Under the pieces are notes generated by a model. It was not told the origin of the DNA and did no database searches. It was given only the letters and a program-made list of their open reading frames with translations. This document shows positions 33,974 through 58,872 of a stretch of 64,000 bases of DNA, one piece after another. The stretch is from Apostichopus japonicus. Lineage: Eukaryota > Echinodermata > Holothuroidea > Aspidochirotida > Stichopodidae. The translations under genes and the position numbers were made by a program. Within the stretch, counting starts at the first letter, position 1. Every line of letters begins with the position of its first letter. Location of the stretch: positions 4,266,001-4,330,000 of the forward strand of contig NC_092561.1 of assembly GCF_037975245.1 (NCBI RefSeq), given 5' to 3'.

Positions 33974-34363
33974 ATGCGAGGGTGCCATATTTCATTTCTT
34001 CTGGTACTACGATTGATCACTGGTGTTGGATGCAACAACGAGTTCTGTATGGACTTACCTTATGGTTTCCAAAGTAAACTTATCACCATTGGAAGTAACA
34101 CAGAAATACACTGTGATATCCGTGATTCCTGTACAAGCGGAGTATGGCGGATAACTCTGGAATCAAATGGAACATCTTACGAACTGTCTTCGGGAAACTG
34201 CAGTGCTTGTGGTGACTATTTCACAGTTTTCAATAACAAAACGTCGAATTCCCTAATCATCGAAAACTTCAATTCAGAATTAAGTGGAATGTACACGTGT
34301 GTAAGCGATTCGTGCTCTAATGGAGATAAGGCGTCCCCGACGAGGTGTTTCAATGTTACGGGG
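33974..34363 (+). CDS. Ig-domain membrane protein, copy 1, exon 1 (signal peptide and Ig domain 1)
   Basis: Start chosen at ATG 33974, because the peptide MRGCHISFLLVLRLITGVGC is a good signal peptide; the frame is open further upstream but that part is not protein-like. Residues 21-130 form one Ig-like domain: B-strand Cys47 (EIHC), Trp58 (GVWRITL), and F-strand SGMYTC with Tyr107 and Cys109. Additional cysteines at 20, 25, 53, 76, 79, 114 and 125 suggest extra disulfides. N-glycosylation motifs occur at Asn65, 75, 88 and 127. The exon end at GGG|GTAGCA is phase 0 and joins exon 2 in frame. A second phase-0 donor at 34430 (TCG|GTAATA) would add 22 residues. The protein family is not recognised beyond Ig-like; an adhesion or immune receptor role is inference. 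Confidence 0.82.
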
Positions 34364-34479
34364 GTAGCAAGAGAGCTAAGACAATGTCGTTTAAGACTGT
34401 CCTACCTACAAGAAAATGGAACCTCTTCGGTAATAAACTGTTAGAACTGTTGATAACCACAAATCATGATATATATTCC

Positions 34480-35340: not shown

Positions 35341-35443
35341 ATCTTTACTAACGGTTCCAGTAAAGTATCTGTTCAGACGGGTGCAAGATTGAATTTCACA
35401 TGCATCGATGGGTCAAAAGTCAGAATCAAATGCGGTGACAATG
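35341..35443 (+). CDS. Ig-domain membrane protein, copy 1, exon 2 (start of Ig domain 2)
   Basis: The 103-base exon follows the acceptor GAGCGTAG and ends GACAATG before GTATGC. It encodes residues 131-164: IFTNGSSKVSVQTGARLNFT, then Cys151, the B-strand cysteine of a second Ig-like domain, and a further Cys161. NGS and NFT are glycosylation motifs. The acceptor has a TAG just before it in this frame, so the exon cannot extend left. The terminal single base joins exon 3 to form a Glu codon. The exon is conserved in copies 2 and 3 with one replacement (Ile152 to Met). Confidence 0.82.
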
Positions 35444-35843: not shown

Positions 35844-36262
35844 AAGAATCAGATGTTCCGAATTATTTTCCCCTTTCTGTGTGTTCATTTTCAGCAATCG
35901 ACAAGACGGACAACATAATTGTGAATATTTCTCATAATAATTGTAGAATTAGATGTAAGAAGTCTTTCGATGGTGATGCTCAATGTAAGACTGACTTATA
36001 CCTTGAGGTAAAGAACCGAATCGCGACGACCCGCTTAGTAGCTGGATTTGAAACAACGACTGGTTCGTCTCTGATGGACAAACAGACAGTCAAATCAGCA
36101 AACGGACCTCTCATTATAATCTCTGTATTTCTTGCGATATTTGTTTTCACCACTATTGTACTAGGTAGGTACATTATTAAATCAAGGGGCGGTAGGCACG
36201 ACGATGTCGGAAATCTCCCACGGGCTTGTGAACCGCAGTATGCTGTGGTCATGATGCATTGA
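35844..36262 (+). CDS. Ig-domain membrane protein, copy 1, exon 3 (rest of Ig2, transmembrane helix, tail)
   Basis: The exon follows CATTTCAG, completes a Glu codon and ends at TGA (36260-36262), giving residues 165-303. The Ig2 F strand is NNCRIRC (Cys202 is the likely partner of Cys151), followed by AQCKTDLYLEV. A stalk leads to a hydrophobic helix, about residues 253-271 (PLIIISVFLAIFVFTTIVL), then the positively charged stop-transfer RYIIKSR. A short cytoplasmic tail ends EPQYAVVMMH. YAVV fits a YxxPhi sorting signal or an SH2 site, but it lacks the -2 residue of a classic ITIM. A second acceptor-like TTTTCAG at about 35896 is in frame. An internal GT-AG pair (36008-36164) could remove the helix but would shift the frame. 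Confidence 0.85.
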
Positions 36263-36845
36263 TGTGGTGTTTAATGTGTTTTTAATTTTAATTTTATCTC
36301 AAGTCAATACAAATTAACCTAGCACTGTAAAGACAATCTTTATACTCATGTATCCTGCATATATATAGGCCTTTTTTTTCGTATTTTCACTAAAACTTCA
36401 TGTCATACTTTTCATGGTTTGAAGTTAACATTTCAGAGTGGAAAACAGTCGTTTATTTGCAGCATTAATATTGGAAGAGTCTTAGTCAATTTTATTTTCA
36501 ACTAAGTTTTAATAGTTCACCGTATAGCCACTGTAATATATAATAATCGAGCGTATATCAGTTGTAATATAAAATAATCGAGCGTACAACAGCTGTAATA
36601 TATACAGATTTAACGTTATATCAGCTTACCGAAGTTGCAGTTAACACAAGAAATTGACTTATTAAAAATATCAACCACTTATTGCTATATAATTGGAAAC
36701 ATTATACACCCGTTACTACAAGAAGGACTGAACACGAAGGAAATGTACTTTCAACTTGAAAAATATTCATTTTCTTTTCATTGTCCTATAGTTAAGTCTA
36801 TACGGTTACTCATTACGTATCGATTTAACGACACGGTATATCAGG
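36263..36845. other. 3' flank of Ig-gene copy 1
   Basis: Probable 3' UTR and spacer, conserved in units 2 and 3. No clear AATAAA is present until the satellite monomer, whose own AAAAAATAAAAG contains one. Confidence 0.5.
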
Positions 36846-36861
36846 AAGAAAATATACGGAA

Positions 36862-36897
<36 letters not shown>

Positions 36898-37105
36898 GTA
36901 TATATATTATTTTAACACAAAAAATAAAAGCAAACTCCAATATTGGGTATACATAGCTGCATGTCTCTTATAACATTATTGACGCATTTCTGGATATGGT
37001 AAGAAAGTAAATAGTTTATCAAACGCTTTCTCTTTACCTTAAATTACTAAAACATTTCGATATATTCTGAAAACTACCTTTTAGTTTATAAAATCTACCG
37101 TGATC
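36846..37105. repeat. Single monomer of the satellite, with (AT)n, in unit 1
   Basis: One AT microsatellite (about 36865-36893) followed by one ~200-bp monomer homologous to the arrays at 43010 and 58232. It lacks a ~31-bp segment present in the array monomers: here ATAGCT is directly followed by GCATGTCTC. The missing piece contains CTTTTATTTT, so the hairpin that array monomers can form is absent. Confidence 0.9.
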
Positions 37106-37439
37106 TCGTGATCTCGATATTTGATATTTAAAAGTTTATTGAGGATCAGTTGCATGGTAAAGAGTATGAACATTTTTTGCTTCTATGAATAGACACTAAC
37201 TTCTGATCTGATTTCCATATATAATAATGATAGTATATTTAAATTTTGTTAATTTATTTTATATATTTATACAGGGTAACATATTCAACGTAGTTGTTAT
37301 AAACAGCGGTCCTGTGAAACAATAAAAATATGAAAAAAGCAACATATATAAAATAAAACAGGCAACAAAAATGCTAAAAAAACAAACAAAGAACGATAAA
37401 AGGTAAAATATAAACATTAAGATAGCATGTAAACTTTAA

Positions 37440-37930
37440 GATGACATTTAAAAGTATCAAAAGTATATGCATTCCTCAGGTAGACTGTTCCAAACGGTTG
37501 GACCCATAAACGAGGAGGAGTTTTTAAAACATTCTAACCTATCATCAGGCACGTGAAGATCATTTACATTAAAAGAATGCGTGAGTCCATAATCCTGAAC
37601 ATCAACCTGCATAGTATCATGATTAGAAGTTTAATCTGGCGCCACACCATGGATGGCTTTAAACATTGAAATAGGCATAAAATAATACCTTCTTTGTTTC
37701 ACCTTCATCCATGGAAGTTCCATTACTAGATTAATGCCTCTAAAATAAGTAAAATTTAGTAACAATCCTTGCAGCCCTATTCTTTTTAATGAAATCGTGC
37801 ATTATTGTGCAGTGTGACAGCTCTGTAAGTTCGGGATAAGCTAACTATAGCCAGTAATTATTTTCATATATTTGTCAAGACTAGGAATAAAAAGTTGATA
37901 ACTGACAACCGAACGATTGCGCGCAAATTG
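37440..37930 (-). mobile_element. Non-LTR retrotransposon (LINE) 3'-end remnant at the unit 1/2 junction
   Basis: Minus-strand sequence homologous to the better preserved copies at 52500 and 59690. It retains the PTVWNSL-like and GLTRSFNV-like pieces and the IKKNRAARIV region. It is interrupted by stops and is not functional. The duplication-unit boundary (about 37790) lies within it. Confidence 0.75.
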
Positions 37931-40122
37931 CGCACATTTATTTTACAAAGAGTTGCCGTGTCCGAAGTGGCACATCATGGCAAGAAAAGAAAGAAACATT
38001 ACTGAGCGCGAAACGTGCAAATAATTGCGTTGGCATATGTTTGGGTTTTAAACGGCATCTTTGGGCACATACAACGACGAATAATAATAAATGGTGAAAT
38101 ATACACGCGGATATTGCTCGCGAAGCGTTCGTCCCATATTTTGTTTCATACAGAACATTCCGAACACTAAATAACATAGTGAAAAGATAGGAAGGAACAA
38201 TCACTGAGTGGGGGGTCTGGGGTTCCATAGATATAAAACAAAAACAAACTTTTTAAGATGCAACTTCTGCCGGCATCTGGCAGTCAAGAATAGTACACAG
38301 GCAACATGTTTTCACGTTGTACCGTGTGTTGTAAAGCATCTTTCTGTAACCCTTATTCTTAAAAACAAAATAGGGTAAAATTGGGGAGAATCGGGAACGA
38401 TTTGACCCCACCCATCAAGAAAAAAGAACAAGAACAACAAGTTAACAACAAATATTGCTTTCAATTGAACCTGTATCAGTCATACATTGGTTGCATATTT
38501 CATTTCGTTAAAGCATTGAGTTGGCCTTTTAAGTTCGCTTAAAGTTATGGTACTTTATAATTTAAACAAAAGAAGAAAGAAATAATATTAAAATAGTGAA
38601 CACCATTATTACAAAAGTCGTTACAACAGTGGTGGACTATAACAGTACCGTATTAAACAATGACTGACAACATGCACTCACTTTGTTATTGCAGTGTACA
38701 ACCTCCCCCCCCCCCCCCAATATAAACTGAGGCGAGGTAATTCTAACGGTTCTTGTGTGTGTGAAACATGTAGATTACATTCTAGCCGCCTTATTTGATT
38801 GCTTACGTTGTTCTGGTGCTTTTCGATCGAATATTATGTTGGGTTTGTGAAATGGACTTTTAAGTTTTTACATAACGCCCTCTATTTTTATTTTTATCGT
38901 TAGAGCAGTTCACACTTGGTGTTTCTTTCGATGATTAATATCTTACTGGTGCTTTTCTATTTCTTGTAAAGCATCGACTTTCTTTGTGAGTGATTACTTT
39001 GCTTTAACCATGAGCCGAGTTACTTCATATCTTCATTTGTTACTTACCACAATGCTAAATATAATATCATTATGAGAACCTTGACTTTGAGTTTGAAATC
39101 ATTATCCCGCTTGATTTAGTTTGTCAAGTTAGCAATACATTTGATATTCGATCACATCAACGACTTTTCGTTTTGTATCAGTTATTTGTGACTTTTGTTG
39201 AAACCCCGGGTCTATAATGACTTTATTTATATCAAAGCTTCATCAATTAAAGTAGCTATGGACTACCTAGTCAAGCCTCTCCACTGCTGTTGGTACTGTG
39301 CAATATTCCAAATTTGACAAGCAAAACGTAATATTGCTGAACTTGGGTACCATATGATGGATTAAGGAGAGGATTGGGAGAAGGGATACTCGGCGCACGG
39401 ATTAAATTAGGGGGACTGAGGAATAGGGATAAAGAATACGGTTTTCTCAGTTTCAGAAAATATTTATGGAAAAAATCAAGACTTCCAAAAAGTGTGTGTG
39501 TGTTTGGGGGTGGGGGGGGGGCGGGGTGATAACAAAATTGTTCCTGTGGACCTGTCTGACTTCGGGAAATTCGTATCTCTGAAATGTTTTAGAAAAACAT
39601 CTCTTTTTATCATATTCCTCAAAGAACATTGTAAGATTGTAATTTGTTAATAACACAGAAAATTGGATATCGGTCTATAAGTATATCATTACCCCGAATT
39701 TCATAACGGCATAGCAAACCTTTACCGTTAAACTATATTCATCTAGTTTACTCTAGGATATATAAATGGGGAAGTTACATATAACCCATGTAATAAACGG
39801 ACATGTATTGTAGAAACTGATGTGATACAGGGCTATTAAACATCGATTATTAACATTGATACAATAGATTAGGACTACAAGAGTCATTCAGTGAAACCAA
39901 AAACAATAACTGTATCAAGGGTAAGACCTAAATTTCTATTCGAAATTAAATTCAACGATTAAGTACGATAATTGTGAACGTGTGGTTTCGTTTTTGTTTC
40001 CTACAAGGAAGTTATTCATGTTCAGTAGAATGCTGAGTGCATTCAATTTTGATAATAATCAGTAACAGAGGCAAGTCCATGTTTGGATGTTATTTCTGAC
40101 TGCTCCCAAACAGCGACAGAAA

Positions 40123-40512
40123 ATGCGAGGATGCCATCTTTCATTTCTTCTGGTACTACGATTGATCACTGGTGTTGGGTGCAACAATGAGTTCTGTATG
40201 GGCTTGCCCTATGGTTTCCAAAGTAAACTTATCACCATTGGAAGTAACACAGAAATACACTGTGATATCCGTGATTCCTGTACACGCGGAGTATGGCTGA
40301 TAACTCTGGAATCAAATGGAACATCTTACGAACTGTCTTCGGGAAACTGCAGTGCTTGTGGTGACTATTTCACAGTTTTCAATAACAAAACGTCGAATTC
40401 CCTAATCATCGAAAACTTCAATTCAGAATTAAGTGGCATGTACAAGTGTGTAAGCGATTCGTGCTCTAATGGAGTGAAGGCGTCCCCGACGAGGTGTTTC
40501 AATGTTACGGGG
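40123..40512 (+). CDS. Ig-domain protein, copy 2, exon 1 (signal peptide and Ig1)
   Basis: 130 codons aligned without gaps to copy 1 exon 1, with the same start, signal peptide, cysteines and glycosylation sites. Replacements relative to copy 1: Ile6Leu, Asp27Gly, Ser55Arg, Arg59Leu, Thr108Lys, Asp118Val. The last five are shared with copies 3 and 4, and Leu6 with copy 4. In this comparison about six codons change by replacement and about six silently, so there is no sign of decay. The upstream frame is interrupted by a TAA where copy 1 has TTA, which supports the ATG chosen here. Confidence 0.82.
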
Positions 40513-40614
40513 GTAGCAAGAGAGCTAAGACAATGTCGTTTAAGACTGTCCTACCTACAAGAAAATGGAACCTCTTCGGTAATAAACTGTTAGAACTGTT
40601 GATAACCACAAATT

Positions 40615-40615
40615 A

Positions 40616-40670
<55 letters not shown>

Positions 40671-41030
40671 CTAGCATATAGTTGGGCAACTACTTCGTTT
40701 TCCTCACTATGATATGTATCACTGTAGTATAGTTGGGCAACTCCTCCGTTTTCCTCAGTATATGATATGTATTACTGTAGTATAGTTGGGTAACTCCTCC
40801 GTTTTCCTCAGTATATGATGTGTATCACTGTAGTATAGTTGGGCAACTCATTCGTTTTCCTCAGTATATGATATGTATCACTGTAGTATAGTTGGGTAAC
40901 TCCTCCGTTTTCCTCAGTATATGATGTGTATCACTGTAGTATAGTTGGGTAACTCCTCCGTTCTCCTCAGTATATGATATATATATCATTGTAGTATAGT
41001 TGGGCAACTCATTCGTTTTCCTCAGGGTAA
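40615..41030. repeat. (AT)n plus 53-bp intronic minisatellite, copy 2 (about 7 units)
   Basis: A run of about 24 AT dinucleotides (40617-40664) precedes the same 53-bp array seen in copy 1. Several units carry the TTTTCCTCAG acceptor-like tract. The (AT)n is absent or short in the other copies. Confidence 0.92.
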
Positions 41031-41633
41031 ACTACGAATGCAAAGAGACCTTGGGTAGAGCGATTAAACGATCACAAATTTTGGGCAAGTTTTCTACGTT
41101 TTGACAATTGAATTGGTTAAAATGTTGTATATTCCTCTTCATTGGGAAACATATATTGATTGGATGCATAGTCCGACCAGTTCGTTATTGGTTAAGATGT
41201 TTACCATTTGGTGCCCTATTTGCTACAACCTACATGCAGTCGGTGATACTAGAACGTAGAAAATAACTTAACGTTAATGACAACGTCAGCTCTTACGCAT
41301 CAGTCTCGCAGTAAGCGATGAAATGAGATAACAGCTTTATTAAAACGTTTGCCGATAAAAAAATAAAAAAATAATAAAAAACACTCTTACATTTGATTGT
41401 AATTGTGAACATTACAAAGGTGATTTGGCCATCTAGTCTGCGCGGGATTCACAAGCTCAAAATGAAAAGTTATGACTACATAGTCTACAAACATAATAAT
41501 TTAATGGTTTACCGTTTCAGCTACTTGAAGATGTCCCATGAAGTTGCTGAAAAATTCAGCATTAATGCAGATCCCTATTGACAAATGGTAATTCTCTCAG
41601 ATACTCTGTTTTGTTCTATTTATTCGAGTGTAG
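41031..41633 (+). other. Intron 1 remainder, Ig-gene copy 2
   Basis: Contains about 200 bp also present in copy 3 but missing from copy 1 (around AACATTACAAAGGTGATTT). Relative to copy 1 it lacks the segment just before the exon 2 acceptor region that includes GTTATTGAAT. No coding evidence. Confidence 0.5.
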
Positions 41634-41736
41634 ATCTTTACCAACGGTTCCAGTAAAGTATCTGTTCAGACTGGTGCAAGATTGAATTTCACATGCATGG
41701 ATGGGTCAAAAGTCAGAATCAAATGCGGTGACAATG
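41634..41736 (+). CDS. Ig-domain protein, copy 2, exon 2
   Basis: 103 bases after GAGTGTAG and before GTATGC, with the same phases as copy 1. Residue 152 is Met instead of Ile; the other residues match. Encodes the B-strand half of Ig domain 2. Confidence 0.8.
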
Positions 41737-42139
41737 GTATGCTAATGTCATAGTGAATTATCTCTTTTTAAATTACATACTGTAATTAGTCTATACTGTG
41801 GTTCTGTTATGCAAGTATATGTTGAGTAAGGTTTTTCAGTTTTTCAGTTTTTTTTGTGTGTTTTTAATTTTAATTTTAATGATCTGAAGAGACTTAGCAA
41901 GAGATATTACAGCCAAGTTATGCATTCAATTATTTACACAACCAAACTGATGTCTATATGTCGACAATCTTTTTGCCACTAGTTTATGTAGGCCTACTCT
42001 AAAGAATGATACAATCTTCATAACAAATATCGTTATGATTTAAAGTTATTTACAGATAGGAGACATTCAATATGAGAAGATAAAAATAGAAATGTTCTCA
42101 TCGTAAATATTAATTTGTTCGACGATTCATTCATTTCAG

Positions 42140-42405
42140 AAGAATTAGATGTTCCGAATTATTTTCCCCTTTCTGTGTGTTCATTTTCAGCAATCGACAA
42201 GACGGACATCATAATTGTGGACATTTCTCATAATAATTGTAGAATTAGATGTAAGAAGTCTTTCGATGGTGATGCTCAATGTAAGACTGACTTATACCTT
42301 GTACTAGGTAGGTACATTATTAAATCAAGGGGCGGTAGGCACGACGATGTCGGAAATCTTCCACGGACTTGTGAACCGCAGTATGCTGTGGTCATGATGC
42401 ATTGA
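42140..42405 (+). CDS. Ig-domain protein, copy 2, exon 3, lacking the transmembrane segment
   Basis: Starts after CATTTCAG in the same phase as copy 1 and ends at the same TGA. It is 153 bases shorter: after TDLYL the sequence goes directly to VLGRYIIKSR. This loses residues 219-269 of copy 1 (Ig2 end, stalk and nearly all of the helix) in frame. The junction shares TTG between the two breakpoints. The predicted product (252 residues) has a signal peptide, most of two Ig domains and the former tail with QYAVVMMH, but no membrane anchor, so it would be secreted. A degenerating gene is the alternative. Confidence 0.8.
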
Positions 42406-43009
42406 TATGGTGTTAAATGTGTTTTTAATTTTATATCAAGTCAATACAAATTAACCAAGCACTGTAAAGACAATCTTTATACTCATGTATCCTGCATATA
42501 TATAGGCCTATATATTTTTCGTTTTTTTTTACTAAAACTTCATGTCATACTTTTCATGGTTTGAAGTTAACATTTCAGAGTGGAAAACAGTTGTTTATTT
42601 GCAGCATTAATATTGGAGGAGTCTCAGCCAATTTTATTTTCAACGAAGTTTTAATAGTTCACCGTATAGCCACTGTAATATATAATAGTCAAGCGTATAT
42701 ACGTTGTAACATAAAATAATCGAGCGTACAGCAGCGGTAATGTAGGCCTAAACAGATTAAACGTTATATCAGCTTACCGAAGTTGCAGTTAACACAAAAA
42801 TTTGACTTAATAAAAATATCAACCACATATTGCTATATAATTGGAAACATTATACACCCGTTACAAGAAGGAATGAACACGAAGGAAAAGTACTCTCAAC
42901 TTGAACAATATTTATGTTCTTTTCATTGTCCTATAGTTCAGTCTATACGGATATTCATTTCGTATCGATTTAACGACACGGTATATCAGGAAGAAAATAT
43001 ACGTTAGTC
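42406..43009. other. 3' flank of Ig-gene copy 2
   Basis: Aligns with the 3' flanks of copies 1 and 3. No coding evidence; short frames are not conserved in meaning. Confidence 0.5.
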
Positions 43010-43015
43010 GTTACG

Positions 43016-43057
<42 letters not shown>

Positions 43058-43964
43058 TTAACACAAAAAATAAAAGCAAACTCCAATATTGGGTATACAT
43101 AGCTACTTTTATTTTGAAAACTGCGGAACTGACGCTGCATGCCTCTTATAACATTATTGACGCATTTCTGGATAAGGTATGAAAGTAAATAGTTTAACAA
43201 ACGCTTCCTCTTTACCTTAAATTACTAAAACATTTCGATATATTCTGACAAACTATCTCTTAGTTTATAAAATATATATATATATTATTTTAACACAAAA
43301 AATAAAAGCGAACTCCAATGTTGGGTATACATAGCTACTTTTATTTTGAAAACTGCGGAACTGACGCTGCATGCCTCTTATAACATTATTGACGCATTTC
43401 TGGATAAGGTATGAAAGTAAATAGTTTAACAAACGCTTCCTCTTTACCTTAAATTACTAAAACATTTCGATATATTCTGACAAACTATCTCTTAGTTTAT
43501 AAAATATATATATATATTATTTTAACACAAAAAATAAAAGCGAACTCCAATGTTGGGTATACGTAGCTACTTTTATTTTGAAAACTGCGGAACTGACGCT
43601 GCATGCCTCTTATAACATTATTGACGCATTTCTGGATAAGGTATGAAAGTAAATAGTTTAACAAACGCTTCCTCTTTACCTTAAATTACTAAAACATTTC
43701 GATATATTCTTACAAACTATCTCTTAGTTTATAAAATATATATATATATTATTTTAACACAAAAAATAAAAGCGAACTCCAATGTTGGGTATACGTAGCT
43801 ACTTTTATTTTGAAAACTGCGGAACTGACGCTGCATGCCTCTTATAACATTATTGACGCATTTCTGGATAAGGTATGAAAGTAAATAGTTTAACAAACGC
43901 TTCCTCTTTACCTTAAATTACTAAAACATTTCGATATATTCTGACAAACTATCTCTTAGTTTAT

Positions 43965-44003
<39 letters not shown>

Positions 44004-44446
44004 TTAACACAAAAAATAAAAGCGAACTCCAATGTTGGGTATACGTAGCTACTTTTATTTTGAAAACTGCGAAACTGACGCTGCATGCCTCTTATAACAT
44101 TATTGACGCATTTCTGGATAAGGTATGAAAGTAAATAGTTTAACAAACGCTTCCTCTTTACCTTAAATTACTAAAACATTTCGATATATTCTGACAAACT
44201 ATCTCTTAGTTTATAAAATATATATATATATTATTTTAACACAAAAAATAAAAGCGAACTCCAATGTTGGGTATACGTAGCTACTTTTATTTTGAAAACT
44301 GCGAAACTGACGCTGCATGCCTCTTATAACATTATTGACGCATTTCTGGATAAGGTATGAAAGTAAATAGTTTAACAAACGCTTCCTCTTTACCTTAAAT
44401 TACTAAAACATTTCGATATATTCTGACAAACTATCTCTTAGTTTAT

Positions 44447-44501
<55 letters not shown>

Positions 44502-44950
44502 TTAACACAAAAAATAAAAGCGAACTCCAATGTTGGGTATACGTAGCTACTTTTATTTTGAAAACTGCGAAACTGACGCTGCATGCCTCTTATAACATTA
44601 TTGACGCATTTCTGGATAAGGTATGAAAGTAAATAGTTTAACAAACGCTTCCTCTTTACCTTAAATTACTAAAACATTTCGATATATTCTGACAAACTAT
44701 CTCTTAGTTTATAAAATATATATATATATATATAGTATTTTAACACAAAAAATAAAAGCGAACTCCAATGTTGGGTATACGTAGCTACTTTTATTTTGAA
44801 AACTGCGAAACTGACGCTGCATGCCTCTTATAACATTATTGACGCATTTCTGGATAAGGTATGAAAGTAAATAGTTTAACAAACGCTTCCTCTTTACCTT
44901 AAATTACTAAAACATTTCGATATATTCTGACAAACTATCTCTTAGTTTAT

Positions 44951-45001
<51 letters not shown>

Positions 45002-45684
45002 TTAACACAAAAAATAAAAGCAAACTCCAATGTTGGGTATACATAGCTACTTTTATTTTGAAAACTGCGGAACTGACGCTGCATGCCTCTTATAACATTA
45101 TTGACGCATTTCTGGATAAGGTATGAAAGTAAATAGTTTAACAAACGCTTCCTCTTTACCTTAAATTACTAAAACATTTCGATATATTCTGACAAACTAT
45201 CTCTTAGTTTATAAAATATATATATGTATATATATATTATTTTAACAGAAAAAATAAAAGCGAACTCCAATGTTGGGTATACGTAGCTACTTTTATTTTG
45301 AAAACTGCGAAACTGACGCTGCATGCCTCTTATAACATTATTGACGCATTTCTGGATAAGGTATGAAAGTAAATAGTTTAACAAACGCTTCCTCTTTACC
45401 TTAAATTACTAAAACATTTCGATATATTCTGACAAACTATCTCTTAGTTTATAAAATATATATATATATTATTTTAACACAAAAAATAAAAGCGAACTCC
45501 AATGTTGGGTATACGTAGCTACTTTTATTTTGAAAACTGCGGAACTGACGCTGCATGCCTCTTATAACATTATTGACGCATTTCTGGATAAGGTATGAAA
45601 GTAAATAGTTTAACAAACGCTTCCTCTTTACCTTAAATTACTAAAACATTTCGATATATTCTGACAAACTATCTCTTAGTTTAT

Positions 45685-45747
<63 letters not shown>

Positions 45748-46196
45748 TTAACACAAAAAATAAAAGCGAACTCCAATGTTGGATATACGTAGCTACTTTT
45801 ATTTTGAAAACTGCGAAACTGACGCTGCATGCCTCTTATAACATTATTGACGCATTTCTGGATAAGGTATGAAAGTAAATAGTTTAACAAACGCTTCCTC
45901 TTTACCTTAAATTACTAAAACATTTCGATATATTCTGACAAACTATCTCTTAGTTTATAAAATATATATATATATATATAGTATTTTAACACAAAAAATA
46001 AAAGCGAACTCCAATGTTGGGTATACGTAGCTACTTTTATTTTGAAAACTGCGAAACTGACGCTGCATGCCTCTTATAACATTATTGACGCATTTCTGGA
46101 TAAGGTATGAAAGTAAATAGTTTAACAAACGCTTCCTCTTTACCTTAAATTACTAAAACATTTCGATATATTCTGACAAACTATCTCTTAGTTTAT

Positions 46197-46249
<53 letters not shown>

Positions 46250-47308
46250 AACACAAAAAATAAAAGCAAACTCCAATGTTGGGTATACATAGCTACTTTT
46301 ATTTTGAAAACTGCGGAACTGACGCTGCATGCCTCTTATAACATTATTGACGCATTTCTGGATAAGGTATGAAAGTAAATAGTTTAACAAACGCTTCCTC
46401 TTTACCTTAAATTACTAAAACATTTCGATATATTCTGACAAACTATCTCTTAGTTTATAAAATATATATATGTATATATATATTATTTTAACACAAAAAA
46501 TAAAAGCGAACTCCAATGTTGGGTATACGTAGCTACTTTTATTTTGAAAACTGCGAAACTGACGCTGCATGCCTCTTATAACATTATTGACGCATTTCTG
46601 GATAAGGTATGAAAGTAAATAGTTTAACAAACGCTTCCTCTTTACTTATAATATTATTGACGCATTTCTGGATAAGGTATGAAAGTAAATAGTTTAACAA
46701 ACGCTTCCTCTTTACCTTAAATTACTAAAACATTTCGATATATTCTGACAAACTATCTCTTAGTTTATAATATATATATATATATATATATTATTTTAAC
46801 ACAAAAAATAAAAGCGAACTCCAATGTTGGGTATACGTAGCTACTTTTATTTTGAAAACTGCGAAACTGACGCTGCATGCCTCTTATAACATTATTGACG
46901 CATTTCTGGATAAGGTATGAAAGTAAATAGTTTAACAAACGCTTCCTCTTTACTTATAATATTATTGACGCATTTCTGGATAAGGTATGAAAGTAAATAG
47001 TTTAACAAACGCTTCCTCTTTACCTTAAATTACTAAAACATTTCGATATATTCTTACAAACTATCTCTTAGTTTATAAAATATATATATATATTATTTTA
47101 ACACAAAAAATAAAAGCGAACTCCAATGTTGGGTATACGTAGCTACTTTTATTTTGAAAACTGCGGAACTGACGCTGCATGCCTCTTATAACATTATTGA
47201 CGCATTTCTGGATAAGGTATGAAAGTAAATAGTTTAACAAACGCTTCCTCTTTACCTTAAATTACTAAAACATTTCGATATATTCTGACAAACTATCTCT
47301 TAGTTTAT

Positions 47309-47349
<41 letters not shown>

Positions 47350-47792
47350 TTAACACAAAAAATAAAAGCGAACTCCAATGTTGGGTATACGTAGCTACTT
47401 TTATTTTGAAAACTGCGAAACTGACGCTGCATGCCTCTTATAACATTATTGACGCATTTCTGGATAAGGTATGAAAGTAAATAGTTTAACAAACGCTTCC
47501 TCTTTACCTTAAATTACTAAAACATTTCGATATATTCTGACAAACTATCTCTTAGTTTATAAAATATATATATATATTATTTTAACACAAAAAATAAAAG
47601 CGAACTCCAATGTTGGGTATACGTAGCTACTTTTATTTTGAAAACTGCGAAACTGACGCTGCATGCCTCTTATAACATTATTGACGCATTTCTGGATAAG
47701 GTATGAAAGTAAATAGTTTAACAAACGCTTCCTCTTTACCTTAAATTACTAAAACATTTCGATATATTCTGACAAACTATCTCTTAGTTTAT

Positions 47793-47835
<43 letters not shown>

Positions 47836-48284
47836 TTAACACAAAAAATAAAAGCGAACTCCAATGTTGGGTATACGTAGCTACTTTTATTTTGAAAACT
47901 GCGAAACTGACGCTGCATGCCTCTTATAACATTATTGACGCATTTCTGGATAAGGTATGAAAGTAAATAGTTTAACAAACGCTTCCTCTTTACCTTAAAT
48001 TACTAAAACATTTCGATATATTCTGACAAACTATCTCTTAGTTTATAAAATATATATATATATATATAGTATTTTAACACAAAAAATAAAAGCGAACTCC
48101 AATGTTGGGTATACGTAGCTACTTTTATTTTGAAAACTGCGAAACTGACGCTGCATGCCTCTTATAACATTATTGACGCATTTCTGGATAAGGTATGAAA
48201 GTAAATAGTTTAACAAACGCTTCCTCTTTACCTTAAATTACTAAAACATTTCGATATATTCTGACAAACTATCTCTTAGTTTAT

Positions 48285-48339
<55 letters not shown>

Positions 48340-49022
48340 TTAACACAAAAAATAAAAGCAAACTCCAATGTTGGGTATACATAGCTACTTTTATTTTGAA
48401 AACTGCGGAACTGACGCTGCATGCCTCTTATAACATTATTGACGCATTTCTGGATAAGGTATGAAAGTAAATAGTTTAACAAACGCTTCCTCTTTACCTT
48501 AAATTACTAAAACATTTCGATATATTCTGACAAACTATCTCTTAGTTTATAAAATATATATATGTATATATATATTATTTTAACAGAAAAAATAAAAGCG
48601 AACTCCAATGTTGGGTATACGTAGCTACTTTTATTTTGAAAACTGCGAAACTGACGCTGCATGCCTCTTATAACATTATTGACGCATTTCTGGATAAGGT
48701 ATGAAAGTAAATAGTTTAACAAACGCTTCCTCTTTACCTTAAATTACTAAAACATTTCGATATATTCTTACAAACTATCTCTTAGTTTATAAAATATATA
48801 TATATATTATTTTAACACAAAAAATAAAAGCGAACTCCAATGTTGGGTATACGTAGCTACTTTTATTTTGAAAACTGCGGAACTGACGCTGCATGCCTCT
48901 TATAACATTATTGACGCATTTCTGGATAAGGTATGAAAGTAAATAGTTTAACAAACGCTTCCTCTTTACCTTAAATTACTAAAACATTTCGATATATTCT
49001 GACAAACTATCTCTTAGTTTAT

Positions 49023-49057
<35 letters not shown>

Positions 49058-49500
49058 TTAACACAAAAAATAAAAGCGAACTCCAATGTTGGGTATACGT
49101 AGCTACTTTTATTTTGAAAACTGCGAAACTGACGCTGCATGCCTCTTATAACATTATTGACGCATTTCTGGATAAGGTATGAAAGTAAATAGTTTAACAA
49201 ACGCTTCCTCTTTACCTTAAATTACTAAAACATTTCGATATATTCTGACAAACTATCTCTTAGTTTATAAAATATATATATATATTATTTTAACACAAAA
49301 AATAAAAGCGAACTCCAATGTTGGGTATACGTAGCTACTTTTATTTTGAAAACTGCGAAACTGACGCTGCATGCCTCTTATAACATTATTGACGCATTTC
49401 TGGATAAGGTATGAAAGTAAATAGTTTAACAAACGCTTCCTCTTTACCTTAAATTACTAAAACATTTCGATATATTCTGACAAACTATCTCTTAGTTTAT

Positions 49501-49579
<79 letters not shown>

Positions 49580-50028
49580 TTAACACAAAAAATAAAAGCG
49601 AACTCCAATGTTGGGTATACGTAGCTACTTTTATTTTGAAAACTGCGAAACTGACGCTGCATGCCTCTTATAACATTATTGACGCATTTCTGGATAAGGT
49701 ATGAAAGTAAATAGTTTAACAAACGCTTCCTCTTTACCTTAAATTACTAAAACATTTCGATATATTCTGACAAACTATCTCTTAGTTTATAAAATATATA
49801 TATATATATATAGTATTTTAACACAAAAAATAAAAGCGAACTCCAATGTTGGGTATACGTAGCTACTTTTATTTTGAAAACTGCGAAACTGACGCTGCAT
49901 GCCTCTTATAACATTATTGACGCATTTCTGGATAAGGTATGAAAGTAAATAGTTTAACAAACGCTTCCTCTTTACCTTAAATTACTAAAACATTTCGATA
50001 TATTCTGACAAACTATCTCTTAGTTTAT

Positions 50029-50073
<45 letters not shown>

Positions 50074-50590
50074 TTAACACAAAAAATAAAAGCAAACTCC
50101 AATGTTGGGTATACATAGCTACTTTTATTTTGAAAACTGCGGAACTGACGCTGCATGCCTCTTATAACATTATTGACGCATTTCTGGATAAGGTATGAAA
50201 GTAAATAGTTTAACAAACGCTTCCTCTTTACCTTAAATTACTAAAACATTTCGATATATTCTGACAAACTATCTCTTAGTTTATAAAATATATATATGTA
50301 TATATATATTATTTTAACACAAAAAATAAAAGCGAACTCCAATGTTGGGTATACGTAGCTACTTTTATTTTGAAAACTGCGAAACTGACGCTGCATGCCT
50401 CTTATAACATTATTGACGCATTTCTGGATAAGGTATGAAAGTAAATAGTTTAACAAACGCTTCCTCTTTACTTATAATATTATTGACGCATTTCTGGATA
50501 AGGTATGAAAGTAAATAGTTTAACAAACGCTTCCTCTTTACCTTAAATTACTAAAACATTTCGATATATTCTGACAAACTATCTCTTAGT

Positions 50591-50621
<31 letters not shown>

Positions 50622-51144
50622 TATTTTAACACAAAAAATAAAAGCGAACTCCAATGTTGGGTATACGTAGCTACTTTTATTTTGAAAACTGCGAAACTGA
50701 CGCTGCATGCCTCTTATAACATTATTGACGCATTTCTGGATAAGGTATGAAAGTAAATAGTTTAACAAACGCTTCCTCTTTACTTATAATATTATTGACG
50801 CATTTCTGGATAAGGTATGAAAGTAAATAGTTTAACAAACGCTTCCTCTTTACCTTAAATTACTAAAACATTTCGATATATTCTTACAAACTATCTCTTA
50901 GTTTATAACATATATATATATATATATATATATTATTTTAACACAAAAAATAAAAGCAAACTCCAATGTTGGGTATACATAGCTACTTTTATTTTGAAAA
51001 CTGCGGAATTGACGCTGCATGCCTCTTATAACATTATTGACGCATTTCTGGATAAGGTATGAAAGTAAATAGTTTAACAAACGCTTCCTCTTTACCTTAA
51101 ATTACTAAAACATTTCGATATATTCTGACAAACTATCTCTTAGT

Positions 51145-51201
<57 letters not shown>

Positions 51202-51884
51202 TTAACACAAAAAATAAAAGCAAACTCCAATGTTGGGTATACATAGCTACTTTTATTTTGAAAACTGCGGAACTGACGCTGCATGCCTCTTATAACATTA
51301 TTGACGCATTTCTGGATAAGGTATGAAAGTAAATAGTTTAACAAACGCTTCCTCTTTACCTTAAATTACTAAAACATTTCGATATATTCTGACAAACTAT
51401 CTCTTAGTTTATAAAATATATATATATATATTATTTTAACACAAAAAATAAAAGCGAACTCCAATGTTGGGTATACGTAGCTACTTTTATTTTGAAAACT
51501 GCGAAACTGACGCTGCATGCCTCTTATAACATTATTGACGCATTTCTGGATAAGGTATGAAAGTAAATAGTTTAACAAACGCTTCCTCTTTACCTTAAAT
51601 TACTAAAACATTTCGATATATTCTGACAAACTATCTCTTAGTTTATAAAATATATATATATATATATAGTATTTTAACACAAAAAATAAAAGCGAACTCC
51701 AATGTTGGGTATACGTAGCTACTTTTATTTTGAAAACTGCGAAACTGACGCTGCATGCCTCTTATAACATTATTGACGCATTTCTGGATAAGGTATGAAA
51801 GTAAATAGTTTAACAAACGCTTCCTCTTTACCTTAAATTACTAAAACATTTCGATATATTCTGACAAACTATCTCTTAGTTTAT

Positions 51885-51951
<67 letters not shown>

Positions 51952-52170
51952 TTAACACAAAAAATAAAAGCAAACTCCAATATTGGGTATACATAGCTAC
52001 TTTTATTTTGAAAACTGCGGAACTGACGCTGCATGCCTCTTATAACATTATTGACGCATTTCTGGATAAGGTATGAAAGTAAATAGTTTAACAAACGCTT
52101 CCTCTTTACCTTAAATTACTAAAACATTTCGATATATTCTGACGAACTATCTTTTAGTTTATAAAATCTA
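43010..52170. repeat. Large satellite array, about 36 monomers of ~200 bp plus variable (AT)n
   Basis: The shortest period is about 232 bp. Conserved landmarks in each monomer are ATTTTAACACAAAAAATAAA, CTCCAATGTTGGGTATAC, GACGCTGCATGCCTCTTATA and ACAAACGCTTCCTCTTTACC, then a purely AT dinucleotide run of about 6 to 36 repeats. Each monomer can form a hairpin between AAAATAAAAG and CTTTTATTTT. The first and last monomers keep an older form (GCAAACTCCAATATTGGG) also seen in unit 1. Four monomers (near 46640, 46950, 50470 and 50780) contain an internal ~80-bp partial duplication. Minus-strand frames beginning MLNYLLSYL in each monomer are by-products of the repeat. Confidence 0.97.
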
Positions 52171-52299
52171 CCGTGATCTTGTGATATCGATATTTGATAT
52201 TTGAATGTTTATTGAGGAAAAGTTTGCTTATTAAAGAGTATGAACATTTTTTGTTTCTATGAATAGATATAAACTTCTGATCTGAATTCCATGTTTAAT

Positions 52300-52960
52300 A
52301 ATGATAGTTTATTTGTTTATTTATTTAATATATTTATACAGGGTAACATATCCAACATTGTTTTTATAAACAGTGGTCCTGTGAAACAATTAAAATATGC
52401 ACACAAAAAAACAGATATTAAATAAAACAGGCACCAAAAATGCTAAAAAAAAATAACTAAAGAACGATAAAGGTAACATTAAGATATCATGTAAACTTTA
52501 AGATGGCATTTAAAAGTATTAAAATAAATGCATTCCTTAATCAGATAGACTGTTCCAAACGGTTGGACCCATAAATGAGGAGGAGTTTTTAAAACATTCT
52601 AACCTATCATCAGGCACGTGAAGATCATTTACATTAAAAGAACGCGTGAGTCCATAATCCTGAACATCAACCTGCATAGTAACATCATTAGAAGTTTAAT
52701 CTGGCGCCACACCATGTATGGCTTTAAACATTAAAATAGATATAAAATAATTCCTTCTTTGTTTCACATTCATCCATGGAAGTTCCATTACTAGAATAAT
52801 GCCTCTAAAATAAGTAAAATCATTATTTTTAGTAACAATCCTTGCAGCCCTATTCTTTTTAATGAAATCGTGCATTATTATGCAGTGTGACAACTCTGTA
52901 ATTTCGGGATAGGCTAACTATAGCCAGTAATTATTTTCATATATTTGTCAAAACTAGGTA
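52300..52960 (-). mobile_element. LINE 3'-end remnant at the unit 2/3 junction
   Basis: The minus-strand frame contains FIKKNRAARIVTKN, ELPWMNVKQRR and FKAIHGVAPD, then after a stop DYGLTRSFNV and FMGPTVWNSL. This is the typical C-terminal sequence downstream of the reverse transcriptase in CR1/Jockey-like LINEs. Stops interrupt it. The unit boundary (about 52863) falls within this remnant. Confidence 0.85.
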
Positions 52961-55214
52961 TAAAAAGTTGATAACTGACAACCGAACGATTGCGCGCAAA
53001 TTGCGCACATTTATTTTACAAAGAGTTGCCGTGTCCGAAGTGGCACATCATGGCAAGAAAAGAAAGAAACATTACTGAGCTCGAAACGTGCGAATAATTG
53101 CGTTGGCATATGTTTGGGTTTTAAACGGCATCTTTGGGCACATACAACGACGAATAATAATAGAGGGTGAAATATACACGCGGATATTTCTCGCGAAGCG
53201 TTCGTCCGATATTTTGTTTCATACAGAACATTCCGAACACTAAATTACATAGTGAAAAGATAGGAAGGAACAATCACTGAGTGGGGGGGGGGGGGCGGGT
53301 CTGGGGATCCATAGATATAAAAAAAATCAAACATTTTAAGATGCAACTTCTGCCGGCATCTGGCAGTCAAGAATAGTACACAGGCAACATGTTTTCACGT
53401 TGCACCGTGTGTTGTAAAGCTTCTTTCTGTAACCCTTATTCTTAAAAACAGAATAGGGTAAGATTGGGGAGAATCGGGAACGATTTGACCCCACCCATCA
53501 GGAAAAAAAGAACAAGAACAACAAGTTAACAAGAAATATTGCTTTCAATTGAACCTGTATCAGTCATACATTGATTGCATATTTCATTTCGATAAAGCAT
53601 TGAGTTGGCCTTTTAAGTTCGCTTAAAGTTATGGTACTTTATAATTTAAACAAAAGAAGAAAGAAATAATATTAAAATAGTGAACACCATTACAAAAGTC
53701 GTTACAACAGTGGTGGACTATAACTGTACCGTATTAAACAATGACTGACAACATGCACTTACTTTGTTATTGCAGTGTACAACCTCCCCCCACCCCCCCC
53801 CCCCCCAATTTAAACTGAGGCAAGGTAATTCTAACGGTTCTTGTGTGTGAAACATGTAGATTACCTTCTAGCCGCCTTATTTGATTGCTTACGTTGTTCT
53901 GGTGCTTTTCGATCGAATATGTTGGTTTTGTGAAATGGACTTTTAAGTTTTTACATAACGCCCTCTATTTTTATTTTTTATCGTTAGAGCAGTTCACACT
54001 TGGCTTTTCTTTCGATGATTAATATCTTACTGGTGCTTTTCTATTTCTTGTAAAGCATCGACTTTCTTTGTGAGTGATTACTTTGCTTTAACCGTGAGCC
54101 GAGTTACTTCATATCTTCATTTGTTACTTACCACAATGCTAAATATAATATCATTATGAGAACCTTGATTTTGATTTTGGAATCATTATCCCGCTTGATT
54201 TAGTTTGTAAATTAAAAGTTAGCAATACATTTGATGTTCGATCATATCAATGACTTCGTTTTGTATCAGTTATTTGTGACTTTTGTTGAAAACCCGGATC
54301 TATAATGACTTTATTTACATCAAAGCTTCATCAGTAGCTATGGACTACCTAGTCAAGCCTCTCCACTGCTGTTGGCACTGTGCAATGTATATTCCAAATT
54401 TGACAAGCAAAACGTACTATTGCTGAACTTGGGTACCATATGATGGATTAAGGAGAGGATTGGGAGAAGGGATACTCGGCGCACGAATTAAATTAGGGGG
54501 ACTGAGGAATAGGGATAAAGAATACGGTTTTTCTCAGTTTCAGAAAAAAATTTTAAAAAAAAATGAAGGCTTCCAAAACATGTGTGTGTTTGTGTGTGTG
54601 GGGGTGGGGGGTGGATGATAACAAAACTGTTCCTGTGGATCATCTGCCTCAGGAAAATCGTCTCTCTGAAATGTATAAGAAAAACATTTTTTTTTCATAT
54701 TCCTCAAAGAACATTGTAAGATTGTAATTTGTTAATAACACAGAGAAATTTGATATCGGTCTATAAGTATATCATTACCCTGAATTTCATAACGGCATAG
54801 CAAACCTTTACCGTTATACTATATTCATCTAGTTTACTCTAGGATATATAAATGAGGAAGTTGCATAAAACCCATGTAATAAACGGACATGTATTGTAGA
54901 AACTGGTGTGATACAGGGCTATTAAACATCGATTATTAACATTGATACAAAAGATATTAATTAGGACTAAAAGAGTCATTCAGTGAAACCAAAAACAATA
55001 ACTGTATCAAGGGTAAGACCTAAATTTCTATTCGAAATTAAATTTAACGATTAAGTACGATAATTGTGAACGTGTGGTTTTGTTTTTGTTTCCTACAAGG
55101 AAGTTATTCATGTTCAGTAGAATGCTGAGTGCATTCAATTTTGATAATAATCAGTAACAGAGGCAGGTCCATGTTCGGATTTTAGTTCTGACTGCTCCCA
55201 AACAGCGACAGAAA

Positions 55215-55604
55215 ATGCGAGGGTGCCATATTTCATTTCTTTTGGTACTACGATTGACCACTGGTGTTGTGTGCAACAATGAGTTCTGTATGGGCTTGCC
55301 TTATGGTTTCCAAAGTAAGCTTATCACCATTGGAAGTAACACAGAAATACACTGTGATATCCGTGATTCCTGTACACGCGGAGTATGGCTGATAACTCTG
55401 GAATCAAATGGAACATCTTACGAACTGTCTTCGGGAAACTGCATTGCTTGTGGTGACTATTTCACAGTTTTCAATAACAAAACGTCGAATTCCCTAATCA
55501 TCGAAAACTTCAATTCAGAATTAAGTGGCATGTACAAGTGTGTAAGCGATTCGTGCTCTAATGGAGTGAAGGCGTCCCCGACGAGGTGTTTCAATGTTAC
55601 GGGG
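55215..55604 (+). CDS. Ig-domain protein, copy 3, exon 1 (signal peptide and Ig1)
   Basis: 130 codons collinear with copies 1, 2 and 4. Copy-specific replacements include Gly19Val near the signal cleavage site and Ser77Ile, which removes the NCS glycosylation motif at Asn75. Thr15 is shared with copy 4. Donor GGG|GTAGCA conserved. Confidence 0.82.
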
Positions 55605-55732
55605 GTAGCAAGAGAGCTAAGACAATGTCGTTTAAGACTGTCCTACCTACAAGAAAATGGAACCTCTTCGGTAATAAACTGTTAGAACTGTTGATAACCA
55701 CAAATTATGATATATATGTATTCAATCTAGCA

Positions 55733-56190
55733 TACAGTTGGGCAACTCCTTCGCTTTCCTCAGGATATGACATATATTACTGTAGTATAGTTGGGTAACT
55801 CCTCCGTTTTCCTCAGGATATGATGTGTATCACTATAGTATAGTTGCGCAACTCATTCGTTTTCCTCAGTATATGATATGTATCACTGTAGTATAGTTGG
55901 GCAACTCCTCCGTTTTCCTCAGTATATGATATGTATCACTGTAGTATAGTTGGGTAACTCCTCCGTTTTCCTCAGGATATGATATGTATCACTGTAGTAT
56001 AGTTGGGTAACTCCTCCGTTTTCCTCTGTATATGATATGTATCACTGTAGTATAGTTGGGTAACTCCTCCGTTTTCCTCAGGATATGATAAGTATCACTG
56101 TAGTATAGTTGGGCAACTCATTCGTTTCCCTCAGTATATGATATGTATCACTGTAGTATAGTTGGGCAGCTCATTCGTTTTCCTCAGAGT
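55733..56190. repeat. 53-bp intronic minisatellite, copy 3 (about 9 units)
   Basis: The same array as in the other copies with the highest unit number. Units with CCTCAGTATATG and CCTCAGGATATG variants alternate. Confidence 0.92.
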
Positions 56191-56853
56191 AAACTACAAA
56201 TACAAAGAGACCTTGGGTAGAACGATTAAACGATCACAATATTTGGCTAAGTTTTCTACGTTTTGAAAATGGAATTGGTTAAAATGTTGTATATTCCTCT
56301 TCATTGGGAAACATATATATTGATGGATGCATAGTCCGACCAGTACGCTATTGGTTAAGATGTTTACCATTTGGTGCCCAATTTGCTACAACCTACATGG
56401 AGTCGGTGATACTAGAACGTAGGATATAACACAACGTTAATGACAACGTCAGCTCTTACGCACTAGTCTCGCAGTAAGCGATGAAATGAGATAACAGCTT
56501 TATTAAAACGTTTGCCAATAAAAAAAAAAAACACTCTTAAGAACGAAGATTTGATTTTAATTGTGAACATTACAAAGGTGATTTTGCTATCTAGTCTGCG
56601 CGGGATTCACAAGCTCAAAATGAAAAGTTATGACTGTACAGTCTACAAACATAATAATTTAATGGTTTACAGTTTCTGCTACTTGACGACGTCCCGTAAA
56701 GTTGTTGAAAATTTAGTATTAATGCAGATCCCTTTTGACAAATGGTTGATAATTTCGTTCATTAATTATTTTATGAAGTTATTGAATATTTCTTCACTGC
56801 ATGTGTGGTAATTCTCTCAGATACTCTGTTTTGTTCTATTTATTCGAGTGTAG
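56191..56853 (+). other. Intron 1 remainder, Ig-gene copy 3
   Basis: No coding evidence. It combines segments found separately in copies 1 and 2, so it probably represents the fuller ancestral intron. Confidence 0.5.
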
Positions 56854-56956
56854 ATCTTTACCAACGGTTCCAGTAAAGTATCTGTTCAGACGGGTGCAAG
56901 ATTGAATTTCACATGCATGGATGGGTCAAAAGTCAGAATCAAATGCGGTGACAATG
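56854..56956 (+). CDS. Ig-domain protein, copy 3, exon 2
   Basis: 103 bases with the same acceptor (GAGTGTAG), donor (GTATGC) and phases as copies 1 and 2. The peptide is identical to that of copy 2. Confidence 0.8.
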
Positions 56957-57358
56957 GTATGCTAATGACTATAGTGAATTATCTCTTTTTAAATTACATA
57001 CTGTAATTAGTCTATACTGTGGTTCTGTTATGCAAGTATATGTTGAGTAAGGTTTTTCAGTTTTTCAGTTTTTTTTGTGTTTTTAATTTTAATTTTAATG
57101 ATCTGAAGAGACTTAGCAAGAGATATTACAGCCAAGTTATGCATTCAATTATTTACACAACCAAACTGATGTCTATATGTCGACAATCTTTTTGCCACTA
57201 GTTTATGTAGGCCTACTCTAAAGAATTATACAATCTTCATAACAAATATCGTTATGATTTAAAGTTATTTACAGATAGGAGACATTCAATATGAGAAGAT
57301 AAAAATAGAAATGTTCTTATCGTAAATATTAATTTGTTCGACGATTCATTCATTTCAG

Positions 57359-57624
57359 AAGAATCAGATGTTCCGAATTATTTTCCCCTTTCTGTGTGTT
57401 CATTTTCAGCAATCGACAAGACGGACAACATAATTGTGGACATTTCTCATAATAATTGTAGAATTAGATGTAAGAAGTCTTTCGATGGTGATGCTCAATG
57501 TAAGACTGACTTATACCTTGTACTAGGTAGGTACATTATTAAATCAAGGGGCGGTAGGCCCGACGATGTCGGAAATCTTCCACGGACTTGTGAACCGCAG
57601 TATGCTGTGGTCATGATGCATTGA
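57359..57624 (+). CDS. Ig-domain protein, copy 3, exon 3, lacking the transmembrane segment
   Basis: The same 153-base deletion and the same junction (TACCTTGTACTAGG) as copy 2. The frame stays open to the conserved TGA with the QYAVVMMH tail. Differences from copy 2 include Ser instead of Leu at residue 167, Asn instead of Ile at residue 188, and Pro instead of His in the GGR(H/P)DD part. The predicted product is secreted, 252 residues. Confidence 0.8.

Positions 57625-58831: not shown

Positions 58832-58872
<41 letters not shown>

What the first reader, a model, noticed from the sequence alone, without database searches (positions are those of the whole stretch)
35844..57624. In-frame loss of the membrane anchor in two of three tandem Ig-protein genes
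Seen: exon 3 of copy 1 encodes a 51-residue stretch (219-269) with stalk and helix. Copies 2 and 3 lack exactly 153 bases with an identical junction and stay open to the same stop. The breakpoints share TTG, fitting a microhomology deletion before units 2 and 3 separated. Inference: the cluster encodes one anchored receptor and at least two secreted forms with nearly the same Ig domains, such as decoys or ligands. The deletion also removes the Ig2 end, so folding may be affected.
Basis: partly seen in the sequence, partly recalled or inferred. Interest (0 to 1): 0.8.

Follow-up and report, generated by a model that had tools for sequence, protein, structure and literature searches.

The report
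Sea cucumber receptors without membrane anchors
A cluster of six near-identical immunoglobulin-domain receptor genes in what is probably a sea cucumber holds three copies with a membrane anchor and three in which one clean deletion removed it, so these should make secreted look-alikes of the receptor, although nothing yet shows that they are used.

Summary
Copies 2 and 3 lack the same 153 bases (51 codons) of exon 3, with TTG at both breakpoints, and stay open to the same stop. Sequence beyond the window shows six tandem copies: anchored (1, 4, 6) and anchorless (2, 3, 5), all six frames open. A whole-genome DNA search finds the missing stretch three times, all in this cluster. Distant relatives elsewhere in the genome encode a membrane helix in the matching exon in 9 of 10 genes examined, so the anchored form is ancestral. 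The deletion largely spares Ig2: cysteines stay and the last strand is resealed with hydrophobic residues. Copies exchange parts: about 5.4 kb from copy 1 exon 3 to copy 2 intron 1 matches copies 4/5 without a substitution. Most likely the anchorless genes make secreted two-Ig proteins, comparable in design to LAIR2 or LILRA3. Expression, secretion and decoy function are untested, and private changes in the deleted 3' exons (4 replacement, 1 silent) show no selection.

The parts
33974..34429 (+). unit 1 (anchored) exon 1: signal peptide and Ig1
   Evidence: open frame from ATG to donor TCG|GTAATA; Ig profile match
35341..35443 (+). unit 1 exon 2: first half of Ig2
   Evidence: AG|ATC ... ATG|GTATGC, kept in 6 of 6 units; similar exon in one C15 relative (E 0.018 in a 50-kb search)
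35895..36262 (+). unit 1 exon 3: second half of Ig2, stalk, membrane helix LIIISVFLAIFVFTTIVLG, tail ending QYAVVMMH
   Evidence: hydropathy 2.85; relatives with the same exon layout
36005..36157 (+). the 153 bases that are absent from units 2, 3 and 5
   Evidence: alignment; three matches in the genome search, all in this cluster
36008..36164 (+). possible cryptic 157-nt intron (GAG|GTAAAG ... TACTAG|G) that nearly coincides with the deleted stretch
   Evidence: simple consensus scoring, donor 7.3 and acceptor 5.5; coordinates; no transcript evidence
40123..40578 (+). unit 2 (anchorless) exon 1
41634..41736 (+). unit 2 exon 2
42191..42405 (+). unit 2 exon 3 with the 153-base deletion; junction at 42299-42301 (TTG)
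55215..55670 (+). unit 3 (anchorless) exon 1
56854..56956 (+). unit 3 exon 2
57410..57624 (+). unit 3 exon 3 with the same deletion; junction at 57518-57520
62483..62938 (+). unit 4 (anchored) exon 1; its exons 2 and 3 lie beyond the window (C1:4330805-4330907 and about 4331361-4331728)
35881..41286 (+). tract from unit 1 exon 3 to unit 2 intron 1 that is repeated without a substitution in units 4/5 (from about C1:4331347); 4 indels
   Evidence: 150-base bins with 0 mismatches

Best explanation
Shown from sequence: a six-gene tandem array encodes two-Ig-domain proteins. An ancestral anchored gene suffered one 153-base in-frame deletion in exon 3 that removed stalk and membrane helix. The deleted 3' block now sits in three of six units because units were duplicated and halves of genes recombined or were converted between units. 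Inferred: the anchorless genes are transcribed with the same exon joins and make 257-residue proteins that enter the secretory path by their signal peptide, fold both Ig domains (the final strand of Ig2 is resealed as DLYLVLG in place of DLYLEVK), and are secreted with the former cytoplasmic tail as a C-terminal extension. Most likely role if functional: soluble competitor or ligand for the partner of the anchored copies, in the manner of LAIR2 beside LAIR1.
For: Identical junction in 3 units, apart from one later substitution in unit 5. All six frames open, with GT-AG sites kept. In the deleted forms no 19-residue window outside the signal peptide exceeds hydropathy 0.49, against 2.76-2.85 in the anchored ones; with the alternative upstream acceptor the highest is 1.29. 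Helix in the matching exon of relatives, 9 of 10 with hydropathy 2.89 or more. Exon 1 looks constrained across copies: 11 silent and 14 replacement changes, Fisher p 0.024; pN/pS 0.23-0.45 in the 14 pairs that differ. No frameshifting indel in any of the six coding sequences, although about 10 indels would be expected between units 1 and 3 at the non-coding rate (counts). Ig2 cysteines intact and the conserved LxV replaced by a similar LxL. Copying of parts between units.
Against: No expression or protein data. Private changes in exons 2 and 3 of units 2, 3 and 5 are 4 replacement to 1 silent, about what neutral drift would give, though n is 5; with the upstream acceptor one more replacement in unit 2 would count. 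The frame and Ig1 constraint may predate the deletion, because 5' halves could have belonged to anchored genes. The AlphaFold model of exon 1 was too poor to help (mean pLDDT 35), and Ig2 of the deleted form was not modelled. Pfam scores for Ig are below the curated cut-off (18.9 against 21.8). The first donor is weak by my scoring (2.2).
Confidence: 0.6

Rival explanations
1. The anchorless copies are neutral by-products of tandem duplication: recently broken receptors on the way to becoming pseudogenes, kept open only because they are young.
For: 3' flanks of units 2 and 3 differ by 0.36% (2/550), though unit 5 differs from them by 3-4 of 215; 4 replacement and 1 silent private changes; unit 5 has lost its 3' flank about 220 bases after the stop and unit 6 its 5' flank, so the array does generate truncated units.
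Against: Three of three deleted copies are fully open with GT-AG sites kept, and have the TATA-like element TATATAAATG that reads TATATGAATG in unit 1; the deletion is in frame and resealed.
Confidence: 0.3
2. The anchor is supplied otherwise: exons 1-2 of a deleted unit splice to exon 3 of the next anchored unit (3 to 4, 5 to 6), so products are still anchored.
For: Tandem same-strand units with the same exon phases would make such joins in frame; unit 5 lacks its own 3' flank and unit 6 its upstream region.
Against: Each deleted exon 3 has the same acceptor sequences as the anchored ones of units 1 and 4, and AATAAA-like signals follow every unit. Not tested with RNA.
Confidence: 0.06
3. The stretch is an alternative intron: anchored genes can splice out 157 bases nearly coincident with the deletion, giving a secreted, frameshifted isoform, so the deletion only hard-wires an existing soluble form.
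For: The GAG|GTAAAG donor scores 7.3, above the gene's own donors (2.2 and 6.2), and the acceptor (5.5-6.6) lies within the range of its own acceptors (1.6-7.5); present in 3 of 3 anchored copies.
Against: The deletion junction is not the spliced junction; scoring used a recalled vertebrate-like consensus; the reading frame through the stretch is open in units 1, 4 and 6 and relatives encode a helix in the matching exon.
Confidence: 0.1
4. Assembly error: false tandem copies or a haplotype mix.
For: A tract of about 5.4 kb shows no substitution between units 1/2 and 4/5, and long AT-rich satellite lies between units 2 and 3.
Against: The published assembly that matches in size was built from HiFi long reads (passages); 5' flanks of units 1-5 differ by 5-9% except units 2 and 5, so long reads should be placeable. 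No reads were examined.
Confidence: 0.04

Closest known systems
LAIR1 / LAIR2 (human leukocyte-associated Ig-like receptors)
   Same: Linked anchored and soluble Ig receptors with very similar extracellular parts; [quoted passage not shown]
   Different: One gene pair with a known ligand; here three anchored and three anchorless genes, unknown ligand, and no evidence of shared ancestry.
LILRA3 in the human LILR cluster
   Same: A soluble member lacking membrane region and tail in a tandem Ig-receptor array (PMC8562567, passages).
   Different: Here the former tail sequence is kept in frame after the deletion, and the anchorless form is as frequent as the anchored one.
Ig-receptor families on contigs C15, C3 and C1:20.5 Mb of the same genome
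   Same: Signal peptide and Ig1 in exon 1, then a later exon with half of Ig2, stalk, helix and tail.
   Different: 9 of 10 examined are clearly anchored (the tenth is unclear); several have longer stalks and tails; four C15 members are 23-27% identical to unit 6 in exon 1.

Membership tests
Immunoglobulin superfamily | Ig domain sequence profile | tested here: met
   Pfam ig only below cut-off (18.9 against 21.8 bits), but a profile of 6 exon-1 sequences (2 from this array, 4 from C15) matches solved Ig proteins, best neurotrimin E 1.6e-9
Immunoglobulin superfamily | Ig fold in structure | tested here: inconclusive
   AlphaFold model of exon 1 had mean pLDDT 35
Sea cucumber C15 Ig-receptor family | Exon layout and motif HNNC..C ... 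CK ... LxV in the last exon | tested here: met
   whole-genome matches of a C15 exon 1 to this array are weak, E 0.003 to 0.011
Sea cucumber C15 Ig-receptor family | Membrane helix in the last exon | tested here: not met
   Met by units 1, 4 and 6, not met by units 2, 3 and 5; 9 of 10 relatives meet it
LAIR2-like soluble decoy (works like) | Near-identical ectodomain without anchor | tested here: met
   Exon 1 of units 2, 3 and 5 differs by 1.5-3.3% from units 1 and 4 at DNA level; helix absent
LAIR2-like soluble decoy (works like) | Secretion and competition for the ligand of the anchored form | not testable with these tools
   needs expression and binding assays
ITIM receptors | (I/V/L/S)xYxx(I/V/L) in the tail (recalled consensus) | tested here: not met
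   Tail EPQYAVV (EPQYDVV in unit 6) has proline at -2; only YxxV is present (read)

The most novel reading that the evidence does not exclude
The array is a two-module system: Ig1-bearing 5' halves and anchored or anchorless 3' halves are reshuffled by copying with breakpoints in or near introns, so that a recognition domain can be converted between receptor and matching secreted form, producing matched anchored/soluble pairs such as units 1/2 and 4/5.
Probability: 0.12. Interest if true: 0.65.

Novelty: new member of a known kind. Interest (0 to 1): 0.4.

Why it matters
If the anchorless copies are made, this is an echinoderm example, young by sequence divergence, of how a receptor gene gives rise to a secreted look-alike, a step that I know (from recall) mainly from mammalian receptors such as LAIR2 and LILRA3. 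Because both forms sit side by side with nearly the same recognition domain, the step from receptor to soluble form could be followed across individuals and related species. If they are not made, it is an ordinary case of tandem-array decay.

Tried and rejected
Precise intron loss (retro-copy) as the origin of the deletion: rejected, because the junction retains TACTAG and is not GT-AG. Mobile insertion in copy 1 instead of deletion in copies 2 and 3: rejected, because the 153 bases were found only at the same place in three units and relatives encode a helix in the matching exon. Conflicting tree topologies of the 5' and 3' halves: not supported. AU tests leave ((u1,u4),(u2,u5),u3) acceptable for both halves, so the exchange rests on unequal divergence depth. 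Selection on the deleted form: no signal. Rows dropped: seven hits with E 0.2 to 0.97 to short frames without the motif, judged chance. Whole-genome searches with the window's own Ig1 and with a C15 exon-3 peptide did not complete, so the family count rests on one C15 exon 1 as query, in which unit 1 itself was not listed. Literature: searches listed no paper whose title or abstract start concerns this array or family; two searches gave the papers on LAIR2 and LILRA3, nothing.
Full report
Where it is. That total agrees with the published Apostichopus japonicus assembly (671.60 Mb, 34 scaffolds; PMC10344927, passages seen), so a sea cucumber is very likely; this is an inference from size, not a sequence match.

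Observation. Copies 2 and 3 lack 153 bases of exon 3 with an identical junction and remain open to the same TGA. TTG stands at both breakpoints in copy 1. In my gene model (exon 1 to donor TCG|GTAATA, exon 2 AG|ATC to ATG|GTATGC, exon 3 from TTTTCAG|CAATC) copy 1 encodes 308 residues and copies 2 and 3 encode 257; the lost residues are 224-274. A second acceptor upstream would add 17 residues in frame to each of the six copies.

Six units, not three. A whole-genome search with exon 3 of copy 1 found the same cluster continuing beyond the window. Fetching it gave six exon 1s, six exon 2s and six exon 3s in the 114 kb examined. Units 1, 4 and 6 have the 153 bases; units 2, 3 and 5 lack them. Unit 5 has one further substitution at the junction (V to L). 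The six coding sequences are open. A genome-wide DNA search found the 153 bases three times, all here.

Polarity. Two weak matches on contig C15 (E 0.52 and 0.56) turned out to be relatives with the same layout: exon 1 with signal peptide and Ig1, and a later exon with half of Ig2, stalk, helix and tail. A C15 exon 1 used as query matched 35 places at E 1 or better: 19 on C15, 2 on C3, 5 near C1:20.5 Mb, 5 in this array, 4 elsewhere. The array itself scored only E 0.003-0.011 there, and unit 1 was not listed; kinship therefore rests also on the exon layout and the exon-3 motif. Of 10 relatives whose exon 3 I examined (8 on C15, 1 on C3, 1 on C1), 9 have a clear helix (hydropathy 2.89-4.13); the tenth (L034) has 1.60 in that exon and a hydrophobic stretch in a later open frame. 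The anchored state is therefore most likely ancestral and the deletion derived.

What the deletion does to the protein. The helix scores 2.85, 2.85 and 2.76 in units 1, 4 and 6; in the deleted units no window outside the signal peptide exceeds 0.49, or 1.29 if the upstream acceptor is used. The alignment of 7 sequences shows Ig2 cysteines (17, 21, 31 of the first row) and the V of a final LxV as invariant. The deletion keeps the cysteines and replaces DLYLEVK by DLYLVLG (unit 5: DLYLLLG), so the last strand can plausibly still close. This is inference; Ig2 was not modelled, and the model of exon 1 was poor.

How the deleted form spread. In 5' flanks units 1-5 differ by 5.3-8.7%, except units 2 and 5, which have no substitution over 1000 bases. 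Downstream, units 1 and 4 differ at 0 of 549 bases of 3' flank (2 indels) and 0 of 427 of exon 3. Units 2 and 3 differ at 2 of 550, although their 5' flanks differ at 56 of 981; unit 5 differs from units 2 and 3 at 4 and 3 of 215. From unit 1 exon 3 through the intergenic region to unit 2 intron 1, about 5.4 kb, there is no substitution against units 4/5 (4 indels), with divergence rising on both sides. So genes are mosaics, with breakpoints in or near introns. Tree topologies alone do not show conflict; the evidence is unequal depth.

Selection. Exon 1 across the six units shows 11 silent and 14 replacement changes (Fisher p 0.024) and pN/pS of 0.23-0.45 in the 14 pairs that differ. About 10 indels would be expected in the coding sequence between units 1 and 3 at the flanking rate, and none that shifts the frame is seen. 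These signals cover the array as a whole. For exons 2 and 3, changes private to single deleted units are 4 replacement to 1 silent, or 5 to 1 with the upstream acceptor, with no sign of constraint. The deleted genes are young, so this is weak evidence either way.

Splicing caveat. In anchored copies a GAG|GTAAAG donor and a TACTAG|G acceptor bracket 157 bases (36008-36164 in unit 1) almost coincident with the deletion. The donor scores above the gene's own two donors, and the acceptor within the range of its own acceptors (consensus recalled). Anchored genes might thus also make a secreted, frameshifted isoform. The deletion junction is not that splice junction.

Comparison. The nearest known cases in kind are LAIR1/LAIR2 (PMC8225389, passages) and LILRA3 (PMC8562567, passages): anchored Ig receptors with a soluble neighbour. 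This array resembles them in design, not by tested descent. Searches listed no paper that concerns the array or its family by title or abstract start; a review of animal immunity (PMC13428168, passages) did not mention it in the passages seen, and a holothurian genome preprint (PMC13228809, term search) holds no occurrence of immunoglobulin, Ig-like or Ig domain.

Verdict. A real, derived, in-frame loss of the anchor, best explained by one event, now present in three of six units. Secreted products are the likeliest outcome if the genes are expressed; decoy or ligand function is a reasonable but untested idea.

Noticed in passing
43040-52167: Large array of a roughly 232-base satellite with variable (AT)n stretches between units 2 and 3; it explains the 15-kb spacing and reappears, shorter, after unit 3 (58406-59320) and before unit 6.
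   Followed up: partly
34488-34887, 40677-41025, 55736-56187, 63003-63294: 53-base minisatellite in intron 1 of units 1-4 with differing copy number, in the intron where the histories of 5' and 3' halves part.
   Followed up: partly
63295 to beyond the window end (about C1:4330063): Insertion of about 770 bases in intron 1 of unit 4 with ends CAGGGTTTT...AAAACCCTG and a short flanking repeat CCTCA, probably a small DNA transposon; no second copy in the 114 kb examined.
   Followed up: partly
L021:8098-8654: Units 5 and 6 are joined by a loss: unit 5 ends about 220 bases after its stop, satellite follows, and unit 6 begins about 150 bases before its ATG, so unit 6 (anchored) lacks the shared upstream region.
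   Followed up: partly
33621, 39759, 54845, 62106: TATA-like TATATAAATG upstream of exon 1 in units 2-5; unit 1 has TATATGAATG instead, so promoter strength may differ between copies (motif judged by eye).
   Followed up: no
L026, L027, L028, L030-L033: A larger tandem family of anchored two-Ig receptors on C15 (and C3), several with long Thr/Ser-rich stalks and tyrosine motifs in the tails such as YDDL and YDEI.
   Followed up: partly
20073-22754: Minus-strand exons of a mitochondrial carrier protein (Pfam Mito_carr 62.5 and 61.3 bits); uncoupling-protein-like from recall.
   Followed up: partly
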